Assembly: GCA_024695725.1 (NCBI GenBank)
Contig: JAILHQ010000136.1
Span: forward strand, 1 to 23,190
From: Cyanobacteria bacterium RUI128
Lineage (GTDB): Bacteria; Cyanobacteriota; Vampirovibrionia; Gastranaerophilales; Gastranaerophilaceae
Direction: 5' to 3'
DNA: 23,190 nt
Positions 1 through 21,572 of this stretch are shown here, in pieces; within the stretch, counting starts at the first letter, position 1; every line of letters starts with the position of its first letter. The position numbers and the translations under genes were made by a program. The notes beneath the pieces are model-generated. The model had not been told where the DNA came from. It searched no databases and saw nothing but the letters and a program-made list of their open reading frames with translations.

Positions 1-957
1 TTTTTCTTTACCTAAAGTACCGACGGCTGTCGAGTCAACTCTCTGTCCCTTGAAATAAAAGACCGCTTCTTTAAAATATAACGGAATATCAAACCACGCT
101 TCTGCCCCGAGATTATTTGCGGTACACGTTCCCCAAATACCATCTTTATTTATTTTCAGGTTTACATCAGCGGTTCCTTTAAAATTTCTGAAATTTTCAA
201 TAAACTTTCGCTCGTGCTCCTTTAATTTCTGAATATGCAAAATTGTTGCCATAAGCTCAGATGCAGGAAGTTTTTTACCATTTATATAAAATTCAGGGGG
301 TTCGTTTTTATCAACCAAAACTCCGTCTAAATACAGGTGTGAATTTCCTAAGGTTACTTCAAACTTATTTGCCTTAAGTTTATTATCTACAACTTGCAGC
401 GAACCGGAATCCCCTATATTTACCCCCTCTTTTAAAAACGGAGTATCAATAGCAATTCTCAATTGTATAACGCCGTTTTGTGTGTCAATATTGTTGACAT
501 TGACATTTGCTTCATCAGATTTATAAACCAGATTTGAAATATGAATTTCAGGAAGATTCTTTGGTTCAAAATTACCCCTGCTCTTATGTTTATTTTTTTT
601 ATTTACCCCCTTAAAATAATCTCCGTCAATAAATATATTATTTGCGCTGACCAATGCCAGACGTTTTTGTAATAGCTTATATTTTAAAGAGAGATTATTA
701 ATATCCGCAACCGGTACATTATTATTTTTTGCATTGATCCTGTCAACCTTTAAAGCAAATGTAAGCGCTGGAGATACTTTTAAATTCAGTCCCGTAATAG
801 TTGTTTCTACCCCGCTTTTTTTATTGGCAAAATGGCTCAGTTCCATTTGTACAGATTTACTGTTTACTAATTGTGGCAGCAAAAGTACTATCCCAAGATA
901 TAAACCAATTACGGTTAACAATAAAAGACCTAAAGCTATCTTAAAAATCTTCTTCAT
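1..957 (-). CDS. AsmA/TamB-like envelope protein, N-terminal 319 codons (partial)
   Basis: The frame is open from the ATG at 957 to the window edge, so the gene is cut off on the left. Residues 5-27 form one hydrophobic helix after a Lys-rich start (MKKIFKIALG), giving a signal-anchor with the rest outside the cytoplasm. The following sequence alternates short beta-strand-like stretches (for example ITGLNLKVSPALTFALKVDRI), which resembles AsmA-like proteins that bridge the periplasm and move lipid between membranes. That family call rests on architecture only. No Shine-Dalgarno sequence precedes the ATG, but a TATAAT lies 12 nt upstream, so the mRNA may be nearly leaderless. Two copies of the dispersed GGGGTAAAT element lie inside the gene in the same frame and encode Gly-Val-Asn at residues 117-119 and 178-180. 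The gene lies downstream of the terminator of the preceding minus-strand pair, so it is probably its own transcription unit. Confidence 0.6.
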   Translation of the reverse strand, partial: MKKIFKIALGLLLLTVIGLYLGIVLLLPQLVNSKSVQMELSHFANKKSGVETTITGLNLKVSPALTFALKVDRINAKNNNVPVADINNLSLKYKLLQKRLALVSANNIFIDGDYFKGVNKKNKHKSRGNFEPKNLPEIHISNLVYKSDEANVNVNNIDTQNGVIQLRIAIDTPFLKEGVNIGDSGSLQVVDNKLKANKFEVTLGNSHLYLDGVLVDKNEPPEFYINGKKLPASELMATILHIQKLKEHERKFIENFRNFKGTADVNLKINKDGIWGTCTANNLGAEAWFDIPLYFKEAVFYFKGQRVDSTAVGTLGKEK

Positions 958-9041: not shown

Positions 9042-9190
9042 AAAGAAAAAGTTTGCTAGCGGATTTGCGGTAGTGTGACGGTTGCGAAGCAACCTAACAC
9101 GTTAGTAGTCGCAAAACCACGCTTTTGCGACTACCGCATAATCCAAGACTTCTAAACAAAAGAAAAAGTTTGCTAAGAAACTTAGCAAAC
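9042..9190. repeat. hairpin-rich element bounded by 17-bp direct repeats
   Basis: The 17-mer AAAGAAAAAGTTTGCTA occurs at 9042-9058 and 9159-9175. Between and beside the copies lie four dyads: GGTTGC-GAA-GCAACC (9080-9094); a 12-bp stem with a 6-nt loop (9105-9116 with 9123-9134); an outer pair GCGGTAGT (9067-9074) with ACTACCGC (9130-9137); and GTTTGCTAAG-AAA-CTTAGCAAAC (9168-9190). The last is followed on the minus strand by CTTTTTCTTTTG and could terminate the exbD transcript about 250 nt after its stop. GTTTGCTA in the left repeat can also pair with 9183-9190, so local and long-range folds exclude one another. No ORF is present. It could be a non-coding RNA, a small mobile-element relic or a terminator cluster. 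Confidence 0.5.
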
Positions 9191-9370
9191 ATTAAATAAA
9201 CACGAGGATATTAAGAGAGAGTATAAAAAGAATCTTGTGTTTTATCCCCATCTTTGGAACTCGATCCCTTATTCCTCGTTTCAACTATTAAATTTAATTC
9301 CCGTACTTATATAAAGATTTTTTTCATGGGTAAATTGCTTTTTTTGATAAAAGTTGTTACAGTCTGAAAC

Positions 9371-9396
9371 ATAGTATATACTTGAGTATATACTAT
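9371..9396. promoter_or_regulatory. 26-bp palindrome, candidate operator
   Basis: ATAGTATATACT, a TG spacer and AGTATATACTAT form a perfect dyad. The inner 10-mer AGTATATACT is itself a palindrome, so the site also reads as two tandem operators spaced 12 bp. On the plus strand TTGTTA lies 17 bp upstream of a TATACT within it, resembling a sigma-70 promoter, but no plus-strand gene follows. It lies 47 bp past the exbD stop. The 9191-9370 stretch holds no supportable ORF or other feature. Confidence 0.4.
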
Positions 9397-9424: not shown

Positions 9425-9439
9425 ATATATTTACCCCTA
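9425..9439. repeat. dispersed element ATATATTTACCCCTA
   Basis: A 15-bp copy of the dispersed GGGGTAAAT element, identical to the one at 13160-13174 and to the reverse complement of 13254-13268. It lies 3 nt past the stop codon of the last exbD gene (TAG, 9445-9443). Confidence 0.7.
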
Positions 9440-9442
9440 ACC

Positions 9443-9820
9443 CTAGCCACCTTGGACAGAAACAGAAGAAACACCGACACTGCGTGCAACATCAATAAGT
9501 TTTACGACAGCACCGTGTTCAGCATTAGGTTCGGGAATGATTAACAAACCATCGGGGCACGTTTTCATTTTTGCTGTAATTGTGTTGGACAAATCTTCAA
9601 GTCCGACTTCGGAATCGTCGAGATAGTATTTCCCGTCAGCAGTAACAATAAAGTCGATAGTTTTAAACTCTTTTGTACTTTGTTGTTTTACAGCCTCAGG
9701 AACAATGAGTTTCAGCCCCTGTTGATCCATCATGGGAGCAATTACCATCATTATGATTAACAGTACCAAAAAGATATCTGTCAACGGTGTAATATTTATC
9801 TCATTAAAACTATCTCTCAT
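9443..9820 (-). CDS. exbD: ExbD/TolR family biopolymer transport protein (second copy)
   Basis: A 125-aa protein of the ExbD/TolR family, which works with ExbB/TolQ as the proton channel that energises TonB- or Tol-dependent outer-membrane processes. One transmembrane helix (about 16-34) follows the family motif EINITPLTD, with the proton-carrying Asp at residue 15. The periplasmic part is residues 35-125. The preceding ribosome site is AGAAGG. The gene lies 23 nt after the other exbD stop and is the last of the operon. The first transmembrane region is identical to that of its neighbour over 20 residues (EINITPLTDIFLVLLIIMMV), while the periplasmic domains differ. That suggests duplicated subunits with specialised periplasmic parts. 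Confidence 0.9.
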   Translation of the reverse strand: MRDSFNEINITPLTDIFLVLLIIMMVIAPMMDQQGLKLIVPEAVKQQSTKEFKTIDFIVTADGKYYLDDSEVGLEDLSNTITAKMKTCPDGLLIIPEPNAEHGAVVKLIDVARSVGVSSVSVQGG

Positions 9821-9843
9821 TTTTACCTTCTGTTCGAATAATA

Positions 9844-10296
9844 CTAATTTTCGACTTCTTCCATTTTTTCTTCTAACATCTTTTGAGCTTTCTTAGTCAA
9901 AGGTTCGCCTGCAAGTACAAGTTTTTTGTACTGAGCTTCCTGCGCAGCGTTCATGATATCCATAATAACAGCGCTTTTAACCTTTTCGTCTGCTCTTACG
10001 ACAACCTCTTGTTTTTGAACATTCGGTTTAATTTTTTCTAACTCAACGGCTAAGTTTTCAGCAGAAACATAAGCATCGTTCAAAAAGATTTTACCGTCTT
10101 TTGTAACCGACACAGTTGCATTCTTTTCTTCTATCGCAGAACCGTTATTGATTTCAGGAATTGTCACATTGTTGTTTATTGACTGGAAAGTCGGCGCAAC
10201 AACCATCATAATAATCAACAGAACGAGGAAAATATCTGTTAACGGTGTGATATTTATTTCTGTAAATAATGCATTCTTGCCTGATTTAATAGCCAT
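9844..10296 (-). CDS. exbD: ExbD/TolR family biopolymer transport protein (first copy)
   Basis: A 150-aa ExbD/TolR family protein. A short cytoplasmic start (MAIKSGKNALFT) leads to the EINITPLTD motif with the conserved Asp at residue 21. A transmembrane helix (about 22-41) follows, then a periplasmic domain (NVTIPEINNGSAIEEKNATV onward) ending in a charged helix (AQKMLEEKMEEVEN). It has AAGAGG upstream and begins 19 nt after the ExbB stop, so the four-gene order is TonB, ExbB, ExbD, ExbD. Paired, non-identical ExbD subunits occur in other TonB systems. Whether both join one complex here cannot be read from sequence. Confidence 0.9.
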   Translation of the reverse strand: MAIKSGKNALFTEINITPLTDIFLVLLIIMMVVAPTFQSINNNVTIPEINNGSAIEEKNATVSVTKDGKIFLNDAYVSAENLAVELEKIKPNVQKQEVVVRADEKVKSAVIMDIMNAAQEAQYKKLVLAGEPLTKKAQKMLEEKMEEVEN

Positions 10297-10315
10297 TGTT
10301 TACTTACCTCTTGAA

Positions 10316-10969
10316 TTATCCTAAAGCAATACTTCCTGAAGAAGATTTTGTACCTGCTTCTTCGTCTGAGTCAACAAAGCTTAAGAATAACAATTTGATT
10401 AACTGAAAATCGTCTTCGTATCTTTTAACGATTGACTGGAATGAGTTGTATGCGATTACTGCACAGATAGCAACCCCAAGACCGAAGGCTGTAGCGATAA
10501 GTGCAGAACCGATACCCATAGCAACCGCTGCTGACTGGTTACCTTGCGTAGCCAAATCTTGGAAGGTGTACAGAATTCTGACAACCGTACCGAACAAACC
10601 TAAGAACGGTGCAACACCACCGATTGTACCCAGAATAGTTAAGTGATTTTCTAATTTTCTTGTAGCAAGACTTGCAGCGATATCGAAGGAACGTGAGAAA
10701 CCTTTCTTTTGTTCGGTAAAGATTCTTACAGCTTCTTCGGTAACTTCACCGATTACGCCGCCGCACTGGATAGCAATATTCTGAGCACCTACAAGGTTAC
10801 CTTTTGCTAATTCTTTTTGAAGTTTCGGAATAAAAAGAACTACGTCTCTTTTATTTTTGTTGTAAAAACTGAATCTGTTGATGACCGCTGCCAATACCAA
10901 GATTGAACAAACCAAAATCGGTAAGAGTACCGGCCAATCCATTTGAATTGAATGTAATAATAATTCCAT
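10316..10969 (-). CDS. exbB: MotA/TolQ/ExbB proton channel family protein
   Basis: A 217-aa inner-membrane protein of the ExbB/TolQ/MotA family, the pentameric scaffold around ExbD that uses the proton gradient to drive TonB. Three transmembrane helices are visible at about 13-31, 109-132 and 147-174. The family core is well preserved (LTILGTIGGVAPFLGLFGTV in TM2, then IGSALIATAFGLGVAICAVI in TM3), and a cytoplasmic helical domain lies between TM1 and TM2. It has AGAGGA before the ATG. The gene sits between the TonB-like gene and the first exbD and belongs to the same operon. Confidence 0.92.
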   Translation of the reverse strand: MELLLHSIQMDWPVLLPILVCSILVLAAVINRFSFYNKNKRDVVLFIPKLQKELAKGNLVGAQNIAIQCGGVIGEVTEEAVRIFTEQKKGFSRSFDIAASLATRKLENHLTILGTIGGVAPFLGLFGTVVRILYTFQDLATQGNQSAAVAMGIGSALIATAFGLGVAICAVIAYNSFQSIVKRYEDDFQLIKLLFLSFVDSDEEAGTKSSSGSIALG

Positions 10970-11003
10970 AATTTTATCCTCTTTCTGTTTCCTTGTTTTT
11001 TAA

Positions 11004-12188
11004 TTATCTCATAGATGCTCCGAATACGTTATAGTCGAACGTAAACTGAATATCTATATTAGTACCTTTGTAATCGGCAGGCAATGGTCTGAACGGAGCT
11101 GTCATTTTAACAGCGTTCAGTGCCGCCTGGTCAGCACTCGGCAGACCTGAAGAACGATATACTCGGCATGAAAGCAGCTGACCGTTCTTAGCTATCTTGA
11201 ACAAAAGTACAACCTTTCTGCTTTCGTTACCTTTTGGCGGATGCCAGTTATATTTAATTCTTCTTTGTAATTCTCTCATGTAAGGACCAAAGTCAGGTTC
11301 CTTAATTGCGTCAATACCCGGACGTCCTCCGCCGCCACCAGGGTTACCAGCATAACCTCCTGTACCTTTGCTTCCACCACTTCCGCGTGAAGAGCCTGTT
11401 CCTGTACCTGAGTATGTAGATAATGACGGTGTAGGCGCATACTTTTTAGTGCCTGTTCCGCTTCCGCCTGCTGCAGTACCACCTGTTGGTGAACCGGTCT
11501 TTGCACCCGTACCCCCGACAGGGCCTGTTGCAAGATAGTTACCCTTTGGTGCTCCACTCGGTACAGGTACCGCAAACGGAGTTGTCTGTTTTGGTGCAAC
11601 TGTCTTAGGTGCAGACACCGGTCTTGTTGACGGTGCAGCTGTCGGTCTTGTTACCGGCGGTTTCGGTGACGGTTTTGTAAACTGTCTTTGAGATTCAGCC
11701 TGATGTTCAGCTGGTTTTGGCTGAGTCTGTTTTTTAACAACTTCTTTTTGAAGTGCTTTTTGCTGCTGTTTCTGAATCATTTTGTTCAAATCTGCAGCCG
11801 CAGATGATTTTGTAGGCTTAGTGTTTGAACCTGTCGGCAGAACAACCGGTTTTGTTTTATCTCTCTGACCGCCTGAGCGTGAACTCATATCAGAACGATT
11901 TTTTGTATTCATATCTCTCGGCGGCGCCGGTTTATCAACCAACACAAATTCTATATCTTTTTTATCCATAGGAGGATTCGGGAAGAGGAAAAAATGTATC
12001 CCCAAAACACCCAAAATAAATACTAAAAGCCAGGCAAGACCAACAGATAACGGGTGCAATATTGTCGATAAAGCAACCGCTTTTTTGAACGACAACTCAC
12101 GCTCATCCTTCTTTATTACCGCAGGAAGAGTGTAACCCCCATTGTCTATACCGTCTTCTATTTCGTATTTATTTCCTAATATGCTCAT
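11004..12188 (-). CDS. tonB: TonB/TolA-type energy transducer with long Pro/Gly-rich linker
   Basis: A 394-aa protein from the ATG at 12188; an in-frame TTG at 12206 would add 6 residues. The N-terminal 40 residues are cytoplasmic, and one transmembrane helix spans about 44-69. A basic, Gln/Pro/Lys/Thr-rich periplasmic stretch follows (about 75-210), then a Gly/Ser/Thr-rich low-complexity segment (about 215-285, with runs such as GYAGNPGGGGGRPG). A TonB/TolA C-terminal domain covers about 298-394 (PDFGPYMRELQRRIKYNWHP, then LLFKIAKNGQLLSCRVYRSS, then AALNAVKMTAPFRPLP). It carries energy from ExbB/ExbD to outer-membrane receptors. No receptor gene is in the window. The linker is longer than in E. 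coli TonB (239 aa in total). Ribosome site weak. It is followed 34 bp later by exbB. Confidence 0.88.
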   Translation of the reverse strand: MSILGNKYEIEDGIDNGGYTLPAVIKKDERELSFKKAVALSTILHPLSVGLAWLLVFILGVLGIHFFLFPNPPMDKKDIEFVLVDKPAPPRDMNTKNRSDMSSRSGGQRDKTKPVVLPTGSNTKPTKSSAAADLNKMIQKQQQKALQKEVVKKQTQPKPAEHQAESQRQFTKPSPKPPVTRPTAAPSTRPVSAPKTVAPKQTTPFAVPVPSGAPKGNYLATGPVGGTGAKTGSPTGGTAAGGSGTGTKKYAPTPSLSTYSGTGTGSSRGSGGSKGTGGYAGNPGGGGGRPGIDAIKEPDFGPYMRELQRRIKYNWHPPKGNESRKVVLLFKIAKNGQLLSCRVYRSSGLPSADQAALNAVKMTAPFRPLPADYKGTNIDIQFTFDYNVFGASMR

Positions 12189-12268
12189 TTTCTTTTCGTT
12201 TCTCAAGGTAATCTTAAATCAAACATGATATAAAATTATCCTCTAAATATCCTAAATCATCTTACCGA

Positions 12269-13000
12269 TTATTGAGATACAGTCGGTGTAGATGTAATAG
12301 GTTGTGTCAACACAATGTCAAAAGAAGAACCTGCAGGGATTTCGACATCACTACCTTTATCCCAAACAGCTTTAACAGCACCGCCGCCTGCACCGACTGC
12401 AGTACCTAATGCAGCACCTCTTCCGATATTACCGCCGGCCAACGCACCGAATACAACACCGGATAATGCGCCAACTGCAGCCCCGCCGACTAAATCTTTA
12501 CCATAAGATTTTGCGACATCCTTCTTTGTTCCGCCAACAAGTACTCCTGATCCATCATCTGTTTTTATAACTGCCGATAACGGAATCTGCATACCTGCAG
12601 GAGTTACTATCTGGTTAAATCTTATACACAATTTACCGTTCAGACTTCCGTGTTTTGCGTGAACAACTTCTATAACGTGACCTGTAACCGTACTTCCTGC
12701 AGGAGCCACAAGCCCTCCGTTATAATAAAAATCTGTTGCAAGAACTGTTGAATAAACCTGTCCTTCATACGCTGTTGCAGAACTCAACGGCGTACTTGTA
12801 ACAACTGATAAATGCTGACCCGCAGGAACTGTAACAACTCTTCCTTTTAAAGTATTATTTTGCGGATATTGTGCATCATAATAACTTTTTTGGCTCGACT
12901 GCGGAATCTGTGACTGATTATATGAATAATTTGCACCTGCAAATGACATATTTATTGATAACATTGATACTGCTAATAATAAGCTAACCTTTTTACGCAT
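12269..13000 (-). CDS. secreted beta-domain/glycine-zipper protein
   Basis: A 243-aa exported protein. Residues 1-21 are a signal peptide (MRKKVSLLLAVSMLSINMSF, then AG). Residues about 58-145 form a beta-rich domain with the pattern VPAGQHLSVV, then VAPAGSTVTGHVIEVVHAKH and IPLSAVI. This pattern resembles the VirB10/TrbI-like beta domain, an inference by eye. Residues about 168-212 are a glycine-zipper segment (VGGAAVGALSGVVFGALAGG), possibly membrane-inserting. A final VEIPAGSSFDIVLTQPI strand follows. The same beta pattern appears at the end of the SLH protein at 21713. A strong ribosome site (GGGGAGGG) and a good promoter lie upstream. The gene precedes tonB by 80 bp and may be co-transcribed with it. 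Envelope role likely, exact function unknown. Confidence 0.8.
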   Translation of the reverse strand: MRKKVSLLLAVSMLSINMSFAGANYSYNQSQIPQSSQKSYYDAQYPQNNTLKGRVVTVPAGQHLSVVTSTPLSSATAYEGQVYSTVLATDFYYNGGLVAPAGSTVTGHVIEVVHAKHGSLNGKLCIRFNQIVTPAGMQIPLSAVIKTDDGSGVLVGGTKKDVAKSYGKDLVGGAAVGALSGVVFGALAGGNIGRGAALGTAVGAGGGAVKAVWDKGSDVEIPAGSSFDIVLTQPITSTPTVSQ

Positions 13001-13042
13001 TAAACCCTCCCCTTACTAATAGTAGTAATGCTGTATAATAAC

Positions 13043-13070
13043 ATTGTAACGGTAAACTCAATTATGTCAA
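13043..13070 (-). promoter_or_regulatory. sigma-70-type promoter for the 12269-13000 gene and possibly the TonB operon
   Basis: On the minus strand TTGACA (13070-13065) is followed after 16 bp by TACAAT (13048-13043). This would give a leader of about 35 nt to the ATG at 13000. It is the best -35/-10 pair noted in the window. Confidence 0.6.
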
Positions 13071-13096
13071 TTTATTTACATTAAATTAAAGTTTTT

Positions 13097-13105
13097 GGGG
13101 TAAAT
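13097..13105. repeat. dispersed GGGGTAAAT element
   Basis: An exact 9-bp copy on the plus strand, followed by CCCCTACCC-type sequence on the same strand. It lies in the non-coding region between the divergent 12269-13000 and rny genes. Confidence 0.6.
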
Positions 13106-13159
13106 GCAGGAACCCCTACCCTGACCCTTCCTCCTTATTAGATAAAAAAAGGGGGGATA

Positions 13160-13268
13160 ATATATTTACCCCTATATACAAAAATTTAAATATATGATAG
13201 AATATAATCAGATGTAGTAGAAAAAATTTTTAGGAAAATATATGCGATAAAATTAGGGGTAAATATAT
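13160..13268. repeat. inverted pair of the 15-bp GGGGTAAAT element
   Basis: ATATATTTACCCCTA (13160-13174) and its exact reverse complement (13254-13268) are separated by 79 bp of AT-rich sequence. A degenerate copy (GCGGGTAAAGCG) follows near 13283. The 13001-13423 region has no supportable ORF. It holds the minus-strand promoter at 13043-13070, these elements, and near 13390 a TATAAT-like sequence without a good -35 that could serve rny. Confidence 0.65.
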
Positions 13269-13423
13269 AGGCTAAAATATAGGCGGGTAAAGCGATATAA
13301 CTATCTGAGTATAATAATAACCGAATATATTTACAAGTAACATCCAAATAATTGTGTTGGCAGGCTATATGTGCCGACGGTCGTGTATATTATAATAAAA
13401 AACAGTAGAAAAGGATAAAGCAG

Positions 13424-14938
13424 ATGAATACCGGTATTTCAATCGCTTTGATTGTGGTGTTGGCACTCGCAGTTGCTGTACTCTGTTTTCTGTACGCAAA
13501 ATTGTCAAAACAATCTAAGCTTAGTGCTGCCGATTTAGCTGAAAAAGAGGCTCTTATAAAGAAAGAAGCCGTTATCAGCGCTAAAGAGGCTTTGCAAAAT
13601 GAAAGAGAAAAATTCAATGACGAAGAAAGAGAACGCAGGAGAGAATTAAACAACCTCGAAAACAAACTCTCAAAAAGAGAAGATGAACTTGAAGTAAAAA
13701 TTCAATCCGTTACAGATAAAGAATCAAATTTAGACCATCGAGAAGAAGAAATAGAACGAAAAGAAAGAGAACTTGATGAAGCACTTAAAAGACAGATGGC
13801 AGAACTGGAAAGAATTTCAGGGCTTTCTGTTGAAGAAGCAAAAAATATGTTATTAGAACAGCTTAAGCAGAGTCTTGCTCAGGAGCAGATGCAGCTTATC
13901 CGTGAAAACGAGGCAAAAATCAGAGAAGATGCACAGGAAAAAGCAAAAGAAATCTTATCTACAACAATGCAGCGTTGTATGATGGAACAGGTTGTAGAAT
14001 CAACCGTATCTGTTGTATCTCTTCCGAATGACGAAATGAAAGGACGTATTATCGGCCGTGAAGGACGTAACATCAGAACACTGGAAACTCTTACCGGGGT
14101 TGACCTTATCATTGACGATACCCCTGAGGCAGTTGTTCTTTCTTCCTTCGATCCTGTCCGCCGTGAGGTTGCAAAGCTTGCGCTTGAAAAACTTATTCAG
14201 GACGGACGTATCCACCCTGTGAGAATTGAAGAAGTTGTCGAAAAATCAAAAGCGGAAGTCGAAAAGAAAATATTTACAGAAGGTGAAAATGCCGCTCTTG
14301 ATATGGGTGTTATGGGTTTAAGCAAAGAACTTATAAAAGATTTAGGACGTTTATACTACAGAACAAGTTACGGTCAGAACGTTCTTAATCACTCACTTGA
14401 AGTTGGACACATAGCAGGTATGCTCGCAGCCGAACTCGGCGCTAATGTCTATACAGCAAAACGTGCAGGTTTATTACACGATATCGGTAAAGCCGTTGAC
14501 CAAACTCAGGAAGGTACACACATTCAATTAGGTGTAGAACTTGCAAGAAAGTTCGGAGAACGCGAAGAAATTATTCACGCAATCGAAGCACACCACGACG
14601 ATGTTACAGCTAACACAATTGAGGCCGTATTGGTTAAAATTGCAGATGCAATTTCAGCAGGCCGTCCGGGTGCAAGACGTGATACTTTGGAAATATACAT
14701 CAAACGTCTTCAGAAGATTGAAGAAATCGTTAACAGTTACGAAGGCATCAAACAATCCTTTGCCGTACAGGCAGGACGTGAAGTCAGAGTTATTGTTGAA
14801 GCTGAACAGTTTGATGATTTGGCATCACAAAAACTCGCTCGTGATGTCGCAAATAAAATAGAAAACGAACTCGATTACCCGGGACAAATCAGAGTAACTG
14901 TTGTAAGAGAGTTCAGAGCAGTAGAAGTGGCAAAATAG
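13424..14938 (+). CDS. rny: ribonuclease Y
   Basis: RNase Y is a membrane-anchored endoribonuclease that starts mRNA decay in many bacteria lacking RNase E-led turnover. The 504-aa protein has the full family layout. An N-terminal transmembrane anchor (about 5-25) is followed by a long charged coiled coil (about 30-185, rich in Glu/Lys/Arg). A KH RNA-binding domain follows, with [10 protein letters not shown] at 207-216. The HD phosphohydrolase domain has H323, the catalytic H352-D353 pair in [10 protein letters not shown], and the downstream EAHHDDV. Length matches the usual 500-520 aa. AGGA lies about 8 nt before the ATG. It heads a compact plus-strand series with ymdB next, the same order as ymdA-ymdB in Bacillus. 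Confidence 0.96.
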
Positions 14939-14964
14939 GGGGGAAATGGTAAAAGGAATTCCCC

Positions 14965-15819
14965 TTGCACCGTTTACTAAATAATATGACAAAACAAGAA
15001 CTAAAAATTTTATTTTTCGGAGATCTGGTAGGTAAAACCGGCAGGAATGCAGTGATTACCTACCTTTCCGAGCTACATCAAAATAATAACATTTACCCTT
15101 TTGTAATTATCAACGGAGAGAACGCATCACACGGGTTCGGACTGACTGAAAAGAACTATACAGAACTGACCGAGGCCGGCGTGGACTGCATAACTTCGGG
15201 AAATCATATATGGGATAAAAAAGAAATCTTTACCTATATAGATTCTGCAGACAAACTTATCCGACCTATAAATTACCCTGCGGGAACCCCGGGGGTCGGA
15301 AGCAGACTCTTTGATTTCAACGGAGAAAAAATTGCTGTAATAAATGTGTTGGGCAGAATATTTATGCAGCCTTTAGACTCACCTTGGGAAGTCGTTAAGA
15401 ACGAGGTTGCTAAATTAAAAGAGTTTACTCACAACATTATTGTTGATTTTCATGCAGAAGCAACAGCAGAGAAACTGTGTTTCGGCAGATATTTATCTGA
15501 ACTCGGGATTTCAATGATGGTAGGAACCCACACTCACGTTCAGACTGCGGACGAAACAATAATTAACGGTATGGCATACATTACTGATGCAGGTTTCTGC
15601 GGTGCTGTTGACAGCATAATAGGTATGGAATACGAAACTTCACTGAAGAGATTAACAACAGCCATGCCTGAACGATACGAAGTCGCGACATCTTACCCTG
15701 CGCAAATCAATGCAGTTGAGGTTACCTTATGTGATGGTAAAGCAACTGAAATAAAAAGAATTAAGTTAGAAGTAGAAGCAAAAGAAGAAATGGAGGTCAA
15801 CGTTGAAAGCAGCGTTTGA
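14965..15819 (+). CDS. ymdB: YmdB-type metallophosphoesterase (TIGR00282 family)
   Basis: A homologue of Bacillus YmdB, a dinuclear-metal phosphodiesterase active on 2',3'-cyclic nucleotides (also cAMP-type substrates in vitro) that affects biofilm and motility gene expression. Metal-binding motifs are all visible, numbered from the TTG start: FFGDLVGKTGR with D20, NGENASHGFG with E52-N53, SGNHIWDK with N80-H81, DFHAEAT with H163, and GTHTHVQTAD with H189 and H191. The start is uncertain. TTG at 14965 has AAAAGGA 7 nt upstream and gives 284 aa. The ATG at 14986 has no ribosome site and would give 277 aa starting MTKQELK. GGGGAA and TTCCCC flank the ribosome site and could form a 6-bp hairpin over it. 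The tail after about 265 is acidic. It begins 26 nt after rny. Confidence 0.93.
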   Translation: MHRLLNNMTKQELKILFFGDLVGKTGRNAVITYLSELHQNNNIYPFVIINGENASHGFGLTEKNYTELTEAGVDCITSGNHIWDKKEIFTYIDSADKLIRPINYPAGTPGVGSRLFDFNGEKIAVINVLGRIFMQPLDSPWEVVKNEVAKLKEFTHNIIVDFHAEATAEKLCFGRYLSELGISMMVGTHTHVQTADETIINGMAYITDAGFCGAVDSIIGMEYETSLKRLTTAMPERYEVATSYPAQINAVEVTLCDGKATEIKRIKLEVEAKEEMEVNVESSV

Positions 15820-15843
15820 GTTTTATGATTCGAGGAGGGTGTA

Positions 15844-16692
15844 ATGAAATCAGATCTTCATATACACACGTATTACTCTGACGGAATATTCTCTCCCGAA
15901 AAAATCGTTGATTTAACTGTCGAGCACGGGCTTGAAGCTATATCATTAACTGATCACGACAATATCTTGTCGTATGATGTTGCCAAAAAGTATGTTGAAG
16001 AAAATAATATTAACCTTGAACTCATAAGAGGTGTTGAAATCAATACTCTCTATAAGAGTAATGAAGTTCATATTCTTGGTTATTTTATGGATGTAAACAA
16101 CAAAGATTTCCAAAATATGCTTAAAGCTCAGCAACAGGCGAGAATCAAGCAAACAAAAGAAATCCTGGCACTTCTTAAGAAAAAAGAAGGTATCAAGATT
16201 AATTTTGAGGATGTTAAGAACATGGTAGCGGAAGGCGGCAGTATCGGTCGTCCGCATATCGCAAAAGCCATCACAAATGTTGGCGGAACAAGCAACGTAA
16301 TCGAGGCATACAACAAATATATTCACGTAGATTCACCTGTTTACGTGGAAAGAAAAACTGTATCGCCTTTTGATGTTGTGGAAATAATATACGATGCAGG
16401 CGGGATACCTGTTATAGCACACCCTTATGATGTTGCTATTGCAGACGATTTAATTCCTGAGCTTGTTAACTGCGGGCTGAGAGGTATCGAGGCTTACCAC
16501 AGAAAACACTCTGCACCGTACATTGAGCACTTCTCTACCTTAGCGGAAGAGTACGGTCTGATTGTTACCGGCGGTTCCGATTTCCACGCACCGAATATCA
16601 TGAACGGACAAATTATTCTCGGGAAAAATTTTGTACCTGAATGGGTTTATGATAATCTTGTAAAAGAAAAGAAACGTTTAGATATGGCATAA
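15844..16692 (+). CDS. PHP-domain phosphoesterase (TrpH/YciV-like)
   Basis: A 282-aa protein of the PHP family related to E. coli YciV/TrpH (3',5'-nucleoside bisphosphate phosphatase, also a 5'-3' exoribonuclease trimming rRNA 5' ends). Metal-site motifs are present: DLHIHTYYSDG (H6, H8), LTDHDN (D37-H38-D39), GVEIN (E65), H76 in VHILGY, IGRPHIA (135-140), AHPYD (H193) and GSDFHAPN (D246, H248). The insertion between about 85 and 130 is charged and helical, as in this subfamily. A strong GGAGGG lies 5 nt before the ATG, 24 nt after ymdB. Sitting beside RNase Y and a 2',3'-cyclic nucleotide phosphodiesterase, a role in handling RNA-decay products is a reasonable inference. Confidence 0.9.
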   Translation: MKSDLHIHTYYSDGIFSPEKIVDLTVEHGLEAISLTDHDNILSYDVAKKYVEENNINLELIRGVEINTLYKSNEVHILGYFMDVNNKDFQNMLKAQQQARIKQTKEILALLKKKEGIKINFEDVKNMVAEGGSIGRPHIAKAITNVGGTSNVIEAYNKYIHVDSPVYVERKTVSPFDVVEIIYDAGGIPVIAHPYDVAIADDLIPELVNCGLRGIEAYHRKHSAPYIEHFSTLAEEYGLIVTGGSDFHAPNIMNGQIILGKNFVPEWVYDNLVKEKKRLDMA

Positions 16693-16708
16693 TAGTGAGT
16701 AGCGAATT

Positions 16709-17329
16709 GTGAATAGGAAAAGTAATTTAAAAGACGGTTTCACATTGGTAGAGGTAATAATTTTATTTGTTATCTTTCTTACGGTTGCGGTACTCGTTGT
16801 ACCTTTGTCTGTTGATGATGCAATTACGACAAAGAACAACACACAATGGCAGCACGTTCAGAGCGGCTTTGCAAGCATACCTATTTCTATGATGAATACC
16901 AGCAGCTACAAACAAAGCGGGGTTGTTTCACTTGAACATTTTATTACCGCACTGATTAAAGTTCATCCTTTACGTAACGTTGTAAGTTACAAGATAAAAT
17001 ATTTGAACGGGGATATACCTGAAGAAAGATATACCTTCAAAGAAATCTATAACACCGATAATGGGGCATCAATAGCTTTTAAATGGTTTGACGATTCTCA
17101 AAAAGTCAACGGGGAAGACAAAATCGAAGGTATAATGATGTATGACGTTAACGGAAAACGCGGGCCGAATGTCTGGGGGAAAGACGTTTTCGGTATGAAT
17201 ATTTACGCGAATAAAATTGAACCGTTCGGGAAAAATATGGATCCGCTGACTGTTTCATCAGACTGTTCAAGACAGGGTACGGGACTATATTGTTCTTATT
17301 CCGTACTGCATAACGTTCAGGAACCGTAG
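16709..17329 (+). CDS. prepilin-like (type IV pilin/pseudopilin) protein
   Basis: A 206-aa protein with a class III prepilin signal: basic leader MNRKSNLKDG, cleavage expected between G10 and F11, then FTLVE with Glu at +5 and a hydrophobic helix (about 13-34, VIILFVIFLTVAVLVVPLSV). The mature domain contains YDVNGKRGPNVWGKDVFGMN. I recall this type of pattern from Gastranaerophilales pseudopilins, but that was not checked. The two C-terminal cysteines (SDCSRQGTGLYCSY) could form a disulphide. It begins with GTG and has only a weak ribosome site. No pilus assembly ATPase or prepilin peptidase is in the window, so it may serve a type IV pilus or a type II secretion-like machine encoded elsewhere. 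It lies 16 nt after the PHP gene. Confidence 0.85.
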   Translation: MNRKSNLKDGFTLVEVIILFVIFLTVAVLVVPLSVDDAITTKNNTQWQHVQSGFASIPISMMNTSSYKQSGVVSLEHFITALIKVHPLRNVVSYKIKYLNGDIPEERYTFKEIYNTDNGASIAFKWFDDSQKVNGEDKIEGIMMYDVNGKRGPNVWGKDVFGMNIYANKIEPFGKNMDPLTVSSDCSRQGTGLYCSYSVLHNVQEP

Positions 17330-17339
17330 AGGCAATAAT

Positions 17340-17942
17340 ATGGATAAAAAGAATATTTGCGTTTTTTGTTCATCTTCAAATACTCTCACAAAAGAGTATT
17401 ATGCTGATGCAGAACTGCTTGGAGAACTGCTTGCAAAAGCGGGGTTCAATCTTGTCTATGGCGGAAGTAATGTCGGAACAATGTATTCAATTGCAAAATC
17501 TGCAAAAGAAAACGGCGCAAAAATATACGGGGTTATGCCAGAAAAACTTCACAGTTTCGGGGTTTATTCCGAGGAATGTGATGAGTTTTATCTGACCGAT
17601 AATATGAGAAACAGAAAGACAAAACTTGACGAACTCTCTGACGGAATTATCGCTATGGCAGGAGGGTTCGGAACACTTGAAGAATTTAGCGAAATTCTCT
17701 GCCACAAACAGTTAGGTTACAACAACAAACCTATCGTATTTTTGAACACAAACGGTTTTTACAATAACCTGCTCAAATTTTTCGATAACATAGTAAAAGA
17801 AAGTTTTGCAAAAAACACGGCAAAAGATTTGTACTTTGTCGCAGATACCCCTAAAGATGCGGTAAAATACCTGCTGAATTATGAATACGGCAAAAAAGAA
17901 ATAAAACCTGAAGACATTTACACCTACAACCTTGCAAAATAG
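17340..17942 (+). CDS. LOG family nucleotide 5'-monophosphate phosphoribohydrolase (TIGR00730)
   Basis: A 200-aa Rossmann-like protein of the LOG/YvdD family. These enzymes split the base from nucleoside 5'-monophosphates (cytokinin activation in plants, purine monophosphates in bacteria). The start CVFCSSSNT, then LVYGGSNVGTMYSIA (38-52), IYGVMPE (62-68), the MRNRKTKLDE block (89-98) and AGGFGTLEEFSE (107-118) match the family. The hallmark motif is usually P-G-G-x-G-T-x2-E; here the Pro is Ala. AGAGG overlaps the stop codon of the pseudopilin gene, and the ATG is 11 nt beyond that stop, so translation is probably coupled. Confidence 0.92.
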   Translation: MDKKNICVFCSSSNTLTKEYYADAELLGELLAKAGFNLVYGGSNVGTMYSIAKSAKENGAKIYGVMPEKLHSFGVYSEECDEFYLTDNMRNRKTKLDELSDGIIAMAGGFGTLEEFSEILCHKQLGYNNKPIVFLNTNGFYNNLLKFFDNIVKESFAKNTAKDLYFVADTPKDAVKYLLNYEYGKKEIKPEDIYTYNLAK

Positions 17943-18003
17943 CCAAAATATTTGTTAATTTATATGAAAATTTTCCCGAAAACTAGCAAAAACAAATGTT
18001 TAC

Positions 18004-19749
18004 ATGGTTTTACCACAGCGTATGGACGGTTTTGTAAATAATAGTACTATTTCCCCTTTTGAGTATGGCTTAAAATACAGCAGCAAATACCAAAACTACG
18101 GTGTTGACAAAATTCGTCAAAATAAAGAGAGCAGCAATACACAAAACCAGCCAAAACAACTGACGAATCAGCCTCAGCCGCTTGGAGCCAATATGAATAA
18201 TCTTATCGGTTCTTCGCTGACTGACAATATGGAAATCGTTGTAGATACAGTTACAACACCTAATCAAAACACCCACCAAAGGTTAAAGACTGCAGCCATA
18301 ATCGGAGGCTCTGCAGGAGTCCTCGGGGCAACAGCACTGTTACTTACAAGAGGCAAAATTACCAAAGGGCTCACAAGCACCTTAGGTAAAATCGCCGACG
18401 GAGCAGGCAAAAAAATTGCGGAATTATCAGAAAAACCAACCATATCAAGAGCTGAAGGATACTACCTGAGTTTCCTGCAAAAAGCAAACAAAATCGCGTT
18501 TATGGCACGCGGAACCCTCTTTAATATCTCACCGCTTAAAGACGTACTGTTTGAAAAAATCGTACGCAACAAGCTTGGGTTAAAGAAACCTTGTGATGCC
18601 ATAACATCAGGGTTCAGAAGATTATCCTTCGGTACCGTAAAATCATCCTACAAAAAAGCCTCTCACGATATCAACAGTATGACAAAACTGTTTGAAGAAA
18701 CAGGAGCAAAACACGGGTTTGAACCTGAAGTAACACAAGAACTTAATCAGGGTATCGAAAGAATAAGAACCGCTTTCGACACCCACTTCAGCGAACCTGT
18801 TCTCGAAAAGAGAAGTAATGCTCTTGTCAAAAGGTTTGACGGACTTGGCGGCAGAGTCTATGATTCGGTGTACGGCAGAATTAAAAACTTCGTTACCGAC
18901 GTTGATGAATGGACAACTTTCGTTTCCGAACGACTTGTCGCAGGGGATAAGAAAAGTATTATGAAGGCTCTTGCCGATAAGAAAAAGATTATCTCTAACA
19001 ACCCTGCCGATAACTATCAGGCAATGACTTCCGTACTTGCTAGACTTGAAAAAACAGTCAATCCGCAACATATAGATTCAAGAGGTCTTTTGAGAACCCT
19101 TAAAGGGCTTTCAAAAGAATATATCTCAATTTCTGGCGAAAACGAATCACTCGCTCGCGGAAAAATTGTTGAAACCATCAACAAAAAACTTGATATTGCC
19201 CAAAAACTTGCAACCATCGAAAGCTATACCCCTGAACAAACCAAAACAATAGAGGCGCTGATTCAGGAATTCAGAACGGTAGTAAACTCAGACAAAAAAG
19301 GTGAAATCGAACTTCTGCTTTCAAAATATAAGCAGTTACTGCCAAAAGAAGAATACCTAAAACTCAAAGCAGCTGCGGATAAAACTGTTAAATCACTTAA
19401 TAAAGCCGTCTATCAGGAAGGGTTCGATTACACAGATAAAATCAGAGATTTATCGGTCGGCTCAGCTCTGACTGACGTTGCAATCGGCATGGCTCTTCCG
19501 ATAGGTACAACAAGTATCGCCATCTCTGCTGCAAAAACAAAAGAAAAGAAACGTTCTGTTGCACTGAAATACGGTATCCCGCTGATTGCTGGTCTTGCTA
19601 CAACAACCCTCTGTACAGTAAAACTTATCTCAGGCGGAAGATCACTCATGCTCGGCGGTCTGGTCAGTATTATAGGTAACGAACTGTGCGAAAGATTAGA
19701 CAAACATCTTTTGTCTAAAGATGCTCAAAAAAATGAAAATAATTCATAA
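18004..19749 (+). CDS. large helical membrane-associated protein of unknown family
   Basis: No family recognised. The protein is 581 aa without a standard signal peptide. The N-terminal 90 residues are polar, low-complexity and Asn/Gln-rich (NKESSNTQNQPKQLTNQPQP). A Gly/Ala-rich hydrophobic segment lies at about 96-115 (AAIIGGSAGVLGATALLLTR). A long helical, charged region follows (about 130-475). Near the C-terminus are Gly/Ala-rich hydrophobic segments (about 481-506 and 516-556) and a charged tail. The layout suggests an inner-membrane or membrane-remodelling protein. Neither the ATG at 18004 nor one at 18022 has a clear ribosome site. The start of the protein (STISPFEYGLKYS) loosely resembles the short N-terminal tags in the small proteins downstream. 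It lies 61 nt after the LOG gene. Confidence 0.7.
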   Translation: MVLPQRMDGFVNNSTISPFEYGLKYSSKYQNYGVDKIRQNKESSNTQNQPKQLTNQPQPLGANMNNLIGSSLTDNMEIVVDTVTTPNQNTHQRLKTAAIIGGSAGVLGATALLLTRGKITKGLTSTLGKIADGAGKKIAELSEKPTISRAEGYYLSFLQKANKIAFMARGTLFNISPLKDVLFEKIVRNKLGLKKPCDAITSGFRRLSFGTVKSSYKKASHDINSMTKLFEETGAKHGFEPEVTQELNQGIERIRTAFDTHFSEPVLEKRSNALVKRFDGLGGRVYDSVYGRIKNFVTDVDEWTTFVSERLVAGDKKSIMKALADKKKIISNNPADNYQAMTSVLARLEKTVNPQHIDSRGLLRTLKGLSKEYISISGENESLARGKIVETINKKLDIAQKLATIESYTPEQTKTIEALIQEFRTVVNSDKKGEIELLLSKYKQLLPKEEYLKLKAAADKTVKSLNKAVYQEGFDYTDKIRDLSVGSALTDVAIGMALPIGTTSIAISAAKTKEKKRSVALKYGIPLIAGLATTTLCTVKLISGGRSLMLGGLVSIIGNELCERLDKHLLSKDAQKNENNS

Positions 19750-19818
19750 ATTTATGTAGCAAATTTTTATTTTACGCACGTTATAACATGTACGAAGATA
19801 AACGAAGGAGAAGAAAAT

Positions 19819-20259
19819 ATGAAAGTTGCACCATCTTATGTATCAAGATCAAGATTATTAAAAAAGATAGAACAGCGCGCAGCAGAAAGAGCAGAAAGAA
19901 TACATATCAACGAAAACGTTGACATAATGGATAAAGCTATAATTGAAGCACAATCTGATAACCTTGCAAGATATGCATCAAGACATAATTGTTCTATGAG
20001 ATTTGTTCCGGACAAGAACAACAACACTGTCATGAAAGTATATGAAGACAAAAACGTACTTTACAGACCGTTTAATCCGCTCTGTGACACAGGTTTTTCA
20101 GACCATTTGGTATATCCGTACGTGGAAAATATATACAAAGGTCAGGCTAGTTTACCATCAAGCCACGTACTCACAACAGACAGAATGTTCGCACAAAAAG
20201 TTAAAGAAGCTGTTAATGGCGTACTGAACGCTAACAAAGGTCTGGACAGAAAGGTATAA
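19819..20259 (+). CDS. small hypothetical protein (146 aa)
   Basis: No family recognised. A soluble basic protein with no signal peptide and a helical Arg/Lys/Glu-rich start (SRSRLLKKIEQRAAERAERI). A middle part is possibly beta-rich (CSMRFVPDKNNNTVMKVYED), and the C-terminal helix is FAQKVKEAVNGVLNANKG. The ribosome site is strong (AAGGAG, 9 nt before the ATG). It is the first gene of a two-gene unit, because the next ATG follows its stop by 2 nt. A GTTATAAC palindrome (within 19770-19800) lies in the leader. Confidence 0.75.
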   Translation: MKVAPSYVSRSRLLKKIEQRAAERAERIHINENVDIMDKAIIEAQSDNLARYASRHNCSMRFVPDKNNNTVMKVYEDKNVLYRPFNPLCDTGFSDHLVYPYVENIYKGQASLPSSHVLTTDRMFAQKVKEAVNGVLNANKGLDRKV

Positions 20260-20261
20260 AT

Positions 20262-20645
20262 ATGAATGTAAATTACTCAAACAACTGCAACAGAACATCT
20301 TTTGGTGCATTTAATCAGGCGCAAAAAAATGTTGTAGATCACTTTTCAGATGTTATCAGAGAAATTTCACCTGAACACAGGAAAAAATTTGTACAGGAAG
20401 TTGCGGAAATAATTGAAGGCGCAAAAGGTTGCCCAATAGCCGTTGAACACGAAATGGTTCAGGCAACTACACCATATTACGCACCGGTTGTTGAAGGAAA
20501 GCGCGTTACAACAACAAATAAACACAATAACAAAGCCAACTATATTGTCGATGTTATGCGACGTGCATCAGAATACGCAAAAAATATTGCCGATGCAAAT
20601 GCAAATATCGAAGAAATTAAACATGTATTAAACTTCCCTGCATAA
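20262..20645 (+). CDS. small hypothetical protein with N-terminal T-S-F-G-A tag (127 aa)
   Basis: No family recognised. The protein opens with a short polar leader, MNVNYSNNCNRTSFGAFNQA, containing S-F-G-A at residues 13-16. A mostly helical domain follows (VVDHFSDVIREISPEHRKKF, then NYIVDVMRRASEYAKNIADA). No membrane segments. It begins 2 nt after the stop of the previous gene, with AAAGG inside that gene's last codons, so the two are translationally coupled. A tandem array of the GGGGTAAAT element starts within 10 nt of its stop. The leader resembles that of the next gene (QSPNFGMAM) and may mark a lineage-specific family of tagged proteins. Confidence 0.75.
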   Translation: MNVNYSNNCNRTSFGAFNQAQKNVVDHFSDVIREISPEHRKKFVQEVAEIIEGAKGCPIAVEHEMVQATTPYYAPVVEGKRVTTTNKHNNKANYIVDVMRRASEYAKNIADANANIEEIKHVLNFPA

Positions 20646-20652
20646 ATCGTAA

Positions 20653-20706
20653 GGGGTAAGTTTGTGGTAAAGGGGTAAATGTAGGGGTAAATGTAAGGGT
20701 AAATAT
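20653..20706. repeat. 12-bp tandem array of the GGGGTAAAT element
   Basis: Two identical units AGGGGTAAATGT (20671-20682, 20683-20694) are followed by a third with two changes, AAGGGTAAATAT (20695-20706). They are preceded by a degenerate AGGGGTAAG (20652-20660) and GTGGTAA. The array is followed by an AT tract (ATATATTAATATATATGATAT-like) and lies just after the stop at 20645, between two small-protein genes. Confidence 0.8.
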
Positions 20707-20783
20707 ATTAATATATATGATATGTTATATTTACTGACAGTTTTTTATGATAATATAAAGGTCAAGGTGTTAAGGAGGTAATT

Positions 20784-21131
20784 ATGGAAGTAAGAAGTAT
20801 AAATCAAAGTCCAAACTTCGGAATGGCCATGGTTAAAACAAAACAAGCCGAAAAATATGTTAACAGATTACCTTATGACAAGGCCATGGAAATAATTGTT
20901 ATGGAGATGGACAGCAAACGTAATCCGCTTGATTTTTATGTATCAACAATCGTGAAAAACGGTAAAGAAAAGATTAAAGTTGAAGCCGGACACAAAACTT
21001 TTGTAGAAGGTTTCTTAAGCGGGCCTGTAAAAACAATAAGAAAAGGGTTTGATTTTATTAATAAACTGAACGAAGAACAACAGGCTCAAAATGCTTTAAC
21101 AAAAGGTATGGCAAGACCAACCTTGGGGTAA
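20784..21131 (+). CDS. small hypothetical protein with N-terminal P-N-F-G-M tag (115 aa)
   Basis: No family recognised. It starts MEVRSINQSPNFGMAMVKTK, with N-F-G-M at residues 11-14, a short tag like that of the preceding gene. It continues as a small mixed alpha/beta protein (KAMEIIVMEMDSKRNPLDFYVSTIV reads as strands and helices, split here by eye) with a helical, Gln-rich end. No signal peptide or membrane helix. The ribosome site is very strong (AAGGAGGT, 6 nt before the ATG). AT-rich sequence after the tandem array (20730-20760, TATAAA-like) may hold its own promoter. The stop codon lies inside GGGGTAA, and a full GGGGTAAAT follows immediately. Confidence 0.75.
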   Translation: MEVRSINQSPNFGMAMVKTKQAEKYVNRLPYDKAMEIIVMEMDSKRNPLDFYVSTIVKNGKEKIKVEAGHKTFVEGFLSGPVKTIRKGFDFINKLNEEQQAQNALTKGMARPTLG

Positions 21132-21140
21132 GGGGTAAAT
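21125..21140. repeat. tandem GGGGTAAG-GGGTAAAT element at a gene end
   Basis: GGGGTAAGGGGTAAAT: the first half includes the last Gly codon and the stop of the 20784-21131 gene, and the second half is an exact dispersed element. It lies 7 nt before the terminator stem. Confidence 0.6.
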
Positions 21141-21147: not shown

Positions 21148-21192
21148 CACCATAAAAAAGACTAGGATTACTTCCTAGTCTTTTTTATGGTG
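21148..21192 (+). terminator. strong Rho-independent terminator
   Basis: A 20-bp perfect stem (21148-21167 with 21173-21192) with a 5-nt loop; the core is GACTAGGA/TCCTAGTC flanked by A6/T6 and CACCAT/ATGGTG. It lies 16 nt after the stop of the small protein at 20784. The last two bases are also the first bases of the tRNA-tail repeat. Confidence 0.88.
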
Positions 21193-21208
21193 CCGAAGGC
21201 GGGACTTG
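21191..21208 (-). repeat. 18-bp copy of the tRNA-Leu 3' end (tRNA relic or att scar)
   Basis: TGCCGAAGGCGGGACTTG is identical to 21424-21441, the acceptor and T-arm end of tRNA-Leu, 233 bp apart. After it the sequence differs apart from a TACGCA at a similar offset. Both copies are immediately preceded on the plus strand by a terminator-like hairpin. The stretch between (21209-21387) has no supportable gene. It is rich in small dyads such as AAATCC-TGAC-GGATTT and GCAAC-TTC-GTTGC. Confidence 0.65.
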
Positions 21209-21387
21209 TATCGGATTATTCGGGTACGCATAACACTGCTTTCGCTGTTAAATCCTGACGGATTTAGTTGCTCATTCGTGTTATTTGCTCTTACGAGTTT
21301 CGCAACTTCGTTGCTCACTCTACCGAAAATCCTCTGAACCCGTAAATGCTTCGCATTGGCAGATTTAAGCCCTCACCATTACAATAT

Positions 21388-21421: not shown

Positions 21422-21423
21422 AT

Positions 21424-21504: not shown

Positions 21505-21572
21505 AGAGTGTCCTGCATAACACAAGATGAATAATGAAAGCATACATATCCTTCACTGTTCACTATAAGAAT

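What the first reader, a model, noticed from the sequence alone, without database searches (positions are those of the whole stretch)
9425..21140. Dispersed GGGGTAAAT / ATTTACCCC element, nine exact copies
Exact copies on either strand lie at 418, 601, 9429, 13097, 13164, 13256, 20672, 20684 and 21132. Near copies lie at 9027, 9328, 13283, 20653 and 20697. By a rough hand estimate for about 35% GC, one 9-mer of this make-up should occur about 0.2 times in 23 kb on both strands. Three copies extend to the same 15-mer, TAGGGGTAAATATAT or its complement. Several sit within 10 bp of a stop codon. It resembles neither a terminator nor a DnaA box. A DNA uptake sequence, a nucleoid or regulator site, or a HIP1-like repeat of this lineage are all possible; the window cannot decide.
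Basis: partly seen in the sequence, partly recalled or inferred. Interest (0 to 1): 0.72.

Follow-up and report, generated by a model that had tools for sequence, protein, structure and literature searches.

The report
Genome-wide DNA word in gut bacteria
A nine-letter DNA word, GGGGTAAAT, is scattered far more often than chance through the genomes of one branch of gut-dwelling relatives of cyanobacteria, inside and between genes, which suggests that some cell machinery recognises it, although that machinery is not known.

Summary
GGGGTAAAT occurs 9 times in the window (0.18 expected) and 36-403 times in ten related genomes (reversed-word control 7-40); high counts mark one well-supported Gastranaerophilales clade. 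The window's own genome is not held. The word is enriched between genes and, beyond what amino acids and codon usage predict, inside genes on both strands. Over-representation falls with mismatch number (19-43x, 1.7-2.0x, 1.1-1.2x, about 1x). Where an orthologue lacks a coding copy, 25 of 30 sites align without a gap. DNA signal words (uptake sequences, HIP1, Chi) behave so; transposons and regulator sites do not. Many copies contain or follow a stop codon; some lineages carry tandem arrays headed by the word. The obvious reading, a type IV pilus uptake signal, fails a test: all 13 genomes of the window's sub-clade lack the secretin and the 9 tested lack PilB/PilT-grade ATPases, yet four hold 277-403 copies. 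ComEC and DprA remain. Best reading: a genome-wide recognition word kept by an unidentified DNA-level process. Interesting, not solved.

The parts
418..426 (-). exact GGGGTAAAT inside ORF 1-957(-), read as Gly-Val-Asn
601..609 (-). exact GGGGTAAAT inside ORF 1-957(-), read as Gly-Val-Asn
9425..9439 (-). TAGGGGTAAATATAT; exact core at 9429-9437, 5 nt after the ExbD/TolR stop codon, sense
13097..13105 (+). exact GGGGTAAAT, left arm of an inverted pair (13097-13172) that is predicted to fold as a hairpin
13160..13174 (-). TAGGGGTAAATATAT; core at 13164-13172, right arm of the pair; an exact copy at this place upstream of RNase Y is seen in 8 of 29 relatives printed, but not in the nearest ones (L001, L002, L003, L005)
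13254..13268 (+). TAGGGGTAAATATAT; core at 13256-13264, upstream of RNase Y; same position in L001, L002, L003, L005
20653..20704 (+). short imperfect tandem array: GGGGTAAGT, two exact copies (20672, 20684; period 12), AGGGTAAAT
21132..21140 (+). exact GGGGTAAAT directly after a GGGGTAA that supplies the stop codon; followed by a perfect 20-bp inverted repeat at 21148-21192 (terminator-like)
14939..14947 (+). one-mismatch copy GGGGGAAAT directly after the RNase Y stop codon, where several relatives have the exact word

Best explanation
GGGGTAAAT (flanks mostly A before and RTA after) is a genome-wide DNA recognition word of one Gastranaerophilales clade. Shown: it is over-represented genome-wide in relatives, in both orientations, between genes and inside conserved genes beyond what codon usage predicts, and where an orthologue lacks a coding copy the site usually aligns without a gap. 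Inferred: a trans-acting factor that reads double-stranded DNA favours alleles carrying the word, so copies build up by point change wherever constraint is weak: spacers, gene ends, tolerant codons. The mechanism I find most likely is a recombination- or uptake-biased molecular drive working through the retained ComEC/DprA route, with a recogniser that is not a type IV pilus in the window's lineage. Tandem arrays headed by the word in some lineages would be secondary duplications. The recogniser and any benefit are not shown.
For: Counts of 36-403 per genome in 10 relatives against a reversed-word control of 7-40; 50 further genomes hold 6-416. On a tree of 61 RNase Y rows (60 genomes and the window, which I labelled high although its genome is not held), rows with 60 or more copies lie on one side of a branch with 47 rows (support 100/98: 41 high, 6 low) and the other 14 rows are 13 low and 1 high; the label needs 7 changes against 16.5 for shuffled labels, 0 of 500 shuffles as low. 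In G003 no other 9-mer or 10-mer passed the same thresholds except ones overlapping it; in low-copy G096 only poly-C did. In conserved genes (788 of 1334 ORFs), sense 39 observed against 4.7 expected and antisense 11 against 2.5 under a synonymous-codon model. Mismatch gradient in four genomes 19-43x, 1.7-2.0x, 1.1-1.2x, 1.0-1.06x; G096 0.4, 1.0, 1.05, 1.03; control words at most 5 copies (3.3x) at zero mismatches and 0.58-1.14x at one. Of 114 coding sites, 42 are covered by an orthologue from another genome: 37 without a gap, 5 in a gap; of the 30 where the orthologue lacks the word, 25 are without a gap (which mends). The RTA flank recurs in coding copies. ComEC in 34 of 35 genomes, DprA in 14 of 14.
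Against: The window's sub-clade lacks the pilus secretin (0 of 13 genomes) and PilB/PilT-grade ATPases (0 of 9) but holds up to 403 copies, so a Haemophilus-type drive cannot be what keeps the word there now. The low-copy relatives tested also have ComEC, DprA and secretin. In mixed-distance pairwise DNA alignments, 161 of 330 comparisons had a gap in the word. Many copies in G269 and G312, and some in G010, sit in 45-62 bp arrays, which looks like copying, not point change. Spacing is not more even than random in any of 10 stretches. ORFs without a held orthologue carry the word more densely than conserved ones, 56 in 174,004 codons against 50 in 263,424. The strong bias towards the strand sense to a stop codon (64 sense, 5 antisense) is only partly explained by the word containing stops.
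Confidence: 0.42

Rival explanations
1. Classical uptake signal sequence: a type IV pilus receptor prefers DNA with the word, and transformation spreads it by molecular drive.
For: Mismatch gradient, coding copies mostly in place, non-coding preference, inverted pairs in G003 (7 convergent against 1 divergent within 400 bp), ComEC and DprA present; secretin in 11 of 11 other high-copy genomes tested.
Against: Secretin absent from all 13 genomes of the window's sub-clade, PilB/PilT-grade ATPases absent from 9 of 9 tested there, while G001, G002, G003 and G005 hold 277-403 copies. Low-copy relatives have the same machine.
Confidence: 0.17
2. A site that works inside the cell: a Chi-, HIP1- or nucleoid-protein-like recognition word kept by selection for recombination, repair or chromosome organisation.
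For: Exact word kept across a deep clade, on both strands, inside genes, with or without pili. By 20-kb stretches it lies more often on the G-rich strand in G003 (42:19), G269 (65:44) and G312 (54:30), not in G010 (37:36).
Against: Over longer joined stretches with the word removed from the skew, 173 copies lie on the G-rich strand and 141 on the other, and orientation follows the gene where gene and skew disagree. Not palindromic as HIP1 is. Heavy preference for spacers. The nuclease or binding protein was not sought.
Confidence: 0.25
3. A short dispersed and tandem repeat family that spreads by copying (like cyanobacterial short tandemly repeated repetitive sequences, or decayed miniature elements).
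For: Neighbouring copies at 9-30 bp and 50-57 bp; an 8-bp unit gained or lost between G269 and G312; other short tandem repeats occupy the same spacer in other species; 161 of 330 pairwise comparisons gapped.
Against: In G003 45 of 61 copies are solitary; interiors of inverted pairs differ in length and mostly in sequence; 25 of 30 coding sites lacking the word in an orthologue align without a gap; perfect arrays are few.
Confidence: 0.17
4. A regulatory or transcript-end element: operator near promoters, or an mRNA 3'-end signal after stop codons.
For: 41 of 157 intergenic clusters lie within 20 nt after a sense stop against 6.7% of random intergenic positions; copies upstream of RNase Y recur across species.
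Against: Antisense copies in conserved genes exceed expectation, 11 against 2.5; 30 of the 64 stop-adjacent copies overlap the stop codon themselves; fewer than random near start codons.
Confidence: 0.1

Closest known systems
DNA uptake signal sequences (USS of Haemophilus, DUS of Neisseria)
   Same: Exact 9-10 bp word, over-representation falling with mismatch number, preference for non-coding and weakly constrained coding positions, gain by point change (as described in PMC1939737, passages read; PMC7811141, passages read); ComEC and DprA present.
   Different: Fewer copies (up to 416 here, against 1471 in H. influenzae as quoted in PMC1939737); no secretin or PilB/PilT-grade ATPase in the window's sub-clade; tandem arrays; stop-codon adjacency; no uptake experiment.
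HIP1 (GCGATCGC) of cyanobacteria
   Same: Lineage-wide, genome-wide over-represented short word of unsettled function, in related bacteria (PMC4390886, passages read).
   Different: HIP1 is a palindrome tied to methyltransferases for GATC and CGATCG (abstract); this word is not palindromic and has no such core.
Chi sites
   Same: Short asymmetric G-rich word, also found in genes (Chi features recalled).
   Different: No clear leading-strand bias; strong intergenic preference; recombination nuclease not examined.
Short tandemly repeated repetitive (STRR) sequences of filamentous cyanobacteria
   Same: Intergenic, and tandem 7-8 bp units occur in these genomes; function not known (PMC2670836, passages read).
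   Different: Most copies in G003 are solitary; the word also sits in genes; STRR units are usually 7 bp.

Membership tests
Uptake signal sequence (USS/DUS) | exact word strongly over-represented genome-wide, with graded excess of mismatched forms | tested here: met
Uptake signal sequence (USS/DUS) | copies arise by point change in place, mostly in weakly constrained positions | tested here: inconclusive
   coding: 25 of 30 sites where the orthologue lacks the word have no gap; pairwise DNA comparisons of all distances: 161 of 330 gapped
Uptake signal sequence (USS/DUS) | competence genes ComEC and DprA | tested here: met
   ComEC 34 of 35, absent only in G001; DprA 14 of 14
Uptake signal sequence (USS/DUS) | type IV pilus uptake machine (secretin, PilB/PilT) in the organism | tested here: not met
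   window's sub-clade: secretin 0 of 13, strong T2SSE 0 of 9; secretin present in the other 15 genomes tested. The window's own genome is not held.
Uptake signal sequence (USS/DUS) | preferential uptake of DNA carrying the word | not testable with these tools
   needs a cultured competent strain
HIP1 | palindromic GCGATCGC | tested here: not met
   word is GGGGTAAAT
HIP1 | associated orphan methyltransferases | not tested
   no search made
Chi site | bias to the leading strand | tested here: inconclusive
   198 on the G-rich strand and 129 on the other by 20-kb stretches of four genomes; 173 and 141 over longer stretches, orientation following the gene
Chi site | recognised by a RecBCD/AddAB-type nuclease | not tested
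   no search made
Miniature transposable element | inverted termini around a conserved interior | tested here: not met
   the 14 convergent pairs printed (24-254 bp) have mostly unrelated interiors; two in G003 are related
STRR | tandem heptanucleotide arrays | tested here: not met
   45 of 61 copies solitary in G003; where tandem, spacings are 8-30 and 45-62

The most novel reading that the evidence does not exclude
GGGGTAAAT is the signal of an unknown DNA-recognition system in a major clade of gut Vampirovibrionia: a self-DNA or recombination tag that outlived the loss of the type IV pilus, so either these bacteria take up tagged DNA by a pilus-free outer-membrane route, or the tag is read inside the cell during recombination.
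Probability: 0.3. Interest if true: 0.8.

Novelty: new variant of a known kind. Interest (0 to 1): 0.58.

Why it matters
Genome-wide signal words are known for few lineages, and the well-studied ones led to molecular systems (uptake receptors, Chi-reading nucleases). One in uncultured gut relatives of cyanobacteria would point to how these bacteria exchange or repair DNA. The clade offers a natural experiment: lineages with and without type IV pilus genes keep the same word, so uptake drive and in-cell selection can be told apart. It could also help to assign DNA of this clade in metagenomes.

Tried and rejected
Chance or composition: rejected. Window-only enrichment: rejected. Protein-level explanation (a favoured Gly-Val-Asn tripeptide): rejected as sole cause, because the frames open to the word on both strands exceed a synonymous-codon model. 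Miniature element: convergent pairs have mostly unrelated interiors. Perfect short tandem arrays: few, 0.5-3.4 per 100 kb, and about equal in high-copy (2.5) and low-copy (2.2) loci. Even spacing as for uptake words: not seen. Comparison of the close pair G269/G312 gave little: the fetched stretches share only about 49 kb and 3 places differ. Rfam at gathering scores gives only the tRNA-Leu in the window. Literature: searches listed no paper that by title or abstract treats such a word in Melainabacteria or Gastranaerophilales; one search listed 10 of 97 papers that contain the letters; subscription journals are not held.

Mended on checking: one search had counted hits of a genome to its own loci (L003, L161, L019, L025, L028) as orthologues, giving 38 of 43; one search leaves those out and gives 37 of 42.

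Limits: genes were called as long ORFs without a trained gene finder; the held stretches are about a fifth of each genome; the threshold of 60 copies is mine and the tree is rooted at the midpoint; the codon model ignores codon-pair bias; PilB and PilT are my names for strong matches to PF00437; completeness of the genomes is not told by the tool.
Full report
Observation. Three extend to TAGGGGTAAATATAT. Seven lie between genes, two inside an ORF.

Genome-wide. No genome is held for the window. RNase Y of the window found relatives in the genome collection; the best 80 loci were kept, the nearest 96% identical in protein. In ten genomes behind those loci the word occurs 36-403 times; the same word read backwards occurs 7-40 times. 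Fifty more genomes (of the remaining 70 loci) hold 6-416. Of 289 genomes drawn from the class of G003, all have at least one match; read by eye, most lie near the control and a minority far above it. On a tree of RNase Y from 60 genomes plus the window, rows with 60 or more copies lie on one side of a branch of 47 rows (support 100/98; 41 high, among them the window, which I labelled high without a count, and 6 low); the other 14 rows are 13 low and one with 70 copies. So the word belongs to a deep clade, with later reductions.

Consensus. Between genes the flank after the core reads R-T-A, and the base before it is A in 58% (G003), 72% (other loci) and 6 of 7 (window), but A or G in G010 (its output was cut in part). 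Copies inside genes show the same 3' flank: purine at +9 in 83-91%, T at +10 in 62% of frame-1 and antisense copies (37% in frame 0), A at +11 in 44-81%.

Where it sits. About 90% of the fetched DNA is coding, but 36 of 73 copies in G010, 35 of 61 in G003 and 51 of 86 in the other loci are intergenic, gene-edge copies not counted. Of 157 intergenic clusters in four genomes, 41 lie within 20 nt downstream of a sense stop codon, against 6.7% of random intergenic positions; copies close to start codons or antisense to a stop are fewer than random. Around 2377 stop codons there are 64 sense and 5 antisense copies; in 15 the stop is the TAA inside the word and in 15 the TAG overlaps its first G. 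Part of this bias follows from the word containing stop codons in one frame; the rest I cannot explain. After removing stop-proximal copies, spacers between tandem genes hold 4 sense and 4 antisense copies in G003, 6 and 10 in G010, 30 and 15 in G269, 8 and 11 in G312.

DNA level, not protein level. With amino acids fixed and synonymous codons drawn by usage, conserved genes of four genomes (788 of 1334 ORFs) should hold 4.7 sense and 2.5 antisense copies; they hold 39 and 11. In ORFs without a held orthologue the figures are 40 against 3.5 and 16 against 1.6; some of those ORFs are probably spurious reading frames through arrays. Of 114 coding sites, 72 have no orthologue from another genome among the held sequences. 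In the other 42, 37 align without a gap (12 share the word, 10 have the same residues but not the word, 15 have other residues, such as Gly-Ile-Glu, Asn-Ile-Asn or Gly-Lys-Asp for Gly-Val-Asn) and 5 lie in a gap.

Mismatch gradient. Observed over expected for 0, 1, 2, 3 mismatches is 18.6, 1.67, 1.21, 1.06 in G003; 31.7, 1.75, 1.17, 1.01 in G010; 43.2, 1.83, 1.17, 1.04 in G269; 39.3, 1.96, 1.12, 1.06 in G312; and 0.41, 1.0, 1.05, 1.03 in low-copy G096. A reversed and a shuffled word reach at most 5 copies (3.3x) at zero mismatches and 0.58-1.14x at one. A published analysis describes such a falling excess for the uptake words of H. influenzae and N. gonorrhoeae and quotes 1471 exact and 764 singly mismatched copies in H. 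influenzae (PMC1939737, passages read).

Turnover. The spacer after the RNase Y stop codon shows how labile the sites are: of 29 relatives printed, L005, L007 and L043 have the exact word overlapping the TAG, L001, L003 and L025 4-5 nt on, L004, L029 and L048 near forms, and several others unrelated short repeats. Upstream of RNase Y the copy at 13256 recurs in L001, L002, L003 and L005. The one at 13164 has exact counterparts in L015, L018, L019, L025, L029, L035, L040 and L046, but the nearest relatives L001, L002 and L003 have changed forms there and L005 none. In pairwise DNA alignments of all distances the word is the same in 61 of 330 comparisons, changed without a gap in 108 and gapped in 161; these are not independent. 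In about 49 kb shared by the fetched parts of G269 and G312, 3 places differ, each by substitution, besides an 8-bp unit beside a shared copy.

Arrays. In G003 45 of 61 copies are solitary. In G269 42 of 109, in G312 25 of 84 and in G010 8 of 73 have their nearest neighbour at 45-62 bp. There the word heads a unit of about 52-57 bp with a second constant block, CTACAA, some 28-31 nt further on (counted by eye); a loose search for it matched after 30 of 109 copies in G269, 22 of 84 in G312, 13 of 73 in G010 and 0 of 61 in G003.

Which machine. ComEC is found in 34 of 35 genomes and DprA in 14 of 14, high- and low-copy alike. A secretin is absent from all 13 genomes of the window's 14-row sub-clade (support 100/99) and present in 11 of 11 other high-copy and 4 of 4 low-copy genomes. 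In the 9 genomes of that sub-clade searched for T2SSE ATPases the best match is 4e-28, while 6 of 6 others reach 8.5e-124 or better. The sub-clade nevertheless has 277-403 copies in G001, G002, G003 and G005. The window differs from their RNase Y regions by about 13-24% in DNA, so neutral copies left from a pilus-bearing ancestor should largely have decayed (inference). A pilus-dependent uptake drive is therefore not likely to be the present cause there. Chi-like strand bias is not settled: by 20-kb stretches of four genomes 198 copies lie on the G-rich strand and 129 on the other; over longer joined stretches, with the word left out of the skew, 173 and 141, and orientation follows the gene where gene and skew disagree.

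Verdict. A real, lineage-wide DNA signal word with the sequence signature of uptake or recombination words, whose reader is unknown and probably not the pilus in the window's lineage. I commit to a recombination- or uptake-biased drive through the ComEC/DprA route as the most likely mechanism, with an in-cell recognition word as the near rival.

Noticed in passing
window 9153-9396: A 240-bp intergenic stretch next to exbD matches at 72-88% in G001-G008, at two places in G001 and G002; no Rfam family matches (best E 0.43). It may be a structured RNA or another dispersed repeat.
   Followed up: partly
window 21149-21505: The stretch around the tRNA-Leu and the sequence before it matches many dispersed places in G001-G008, so it holds another repeat family.
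   Followed up: no
window 9056-9149: Another short dispersed repeat, with many matches at 75-92% in G001-G008.
   Followed up: no
G001-G009, G298, G299, G300, G302: This Gastranaerophilales sub-clade seems to have lost the type IV pilus (secretin 0 of 13, strong T2SSE 0 of 9), although the window encodes a protein at 16709-17329 whose start looks to me like a pilin (no Pfam match).
   Followed up: partly
L121-L160 (G269, G312): Other dispersed words are abundant in G269 and G312, such as GTCATTGCGA, GTAGTGTGGAGC and runs of AGTGACTG; they are not among the over-represented words of G003.
   Followed up: no
L121-L160: G269 and G312 are about 96% identical in most aligned segments, but the fetched contigs share little order.
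   Followed up: no
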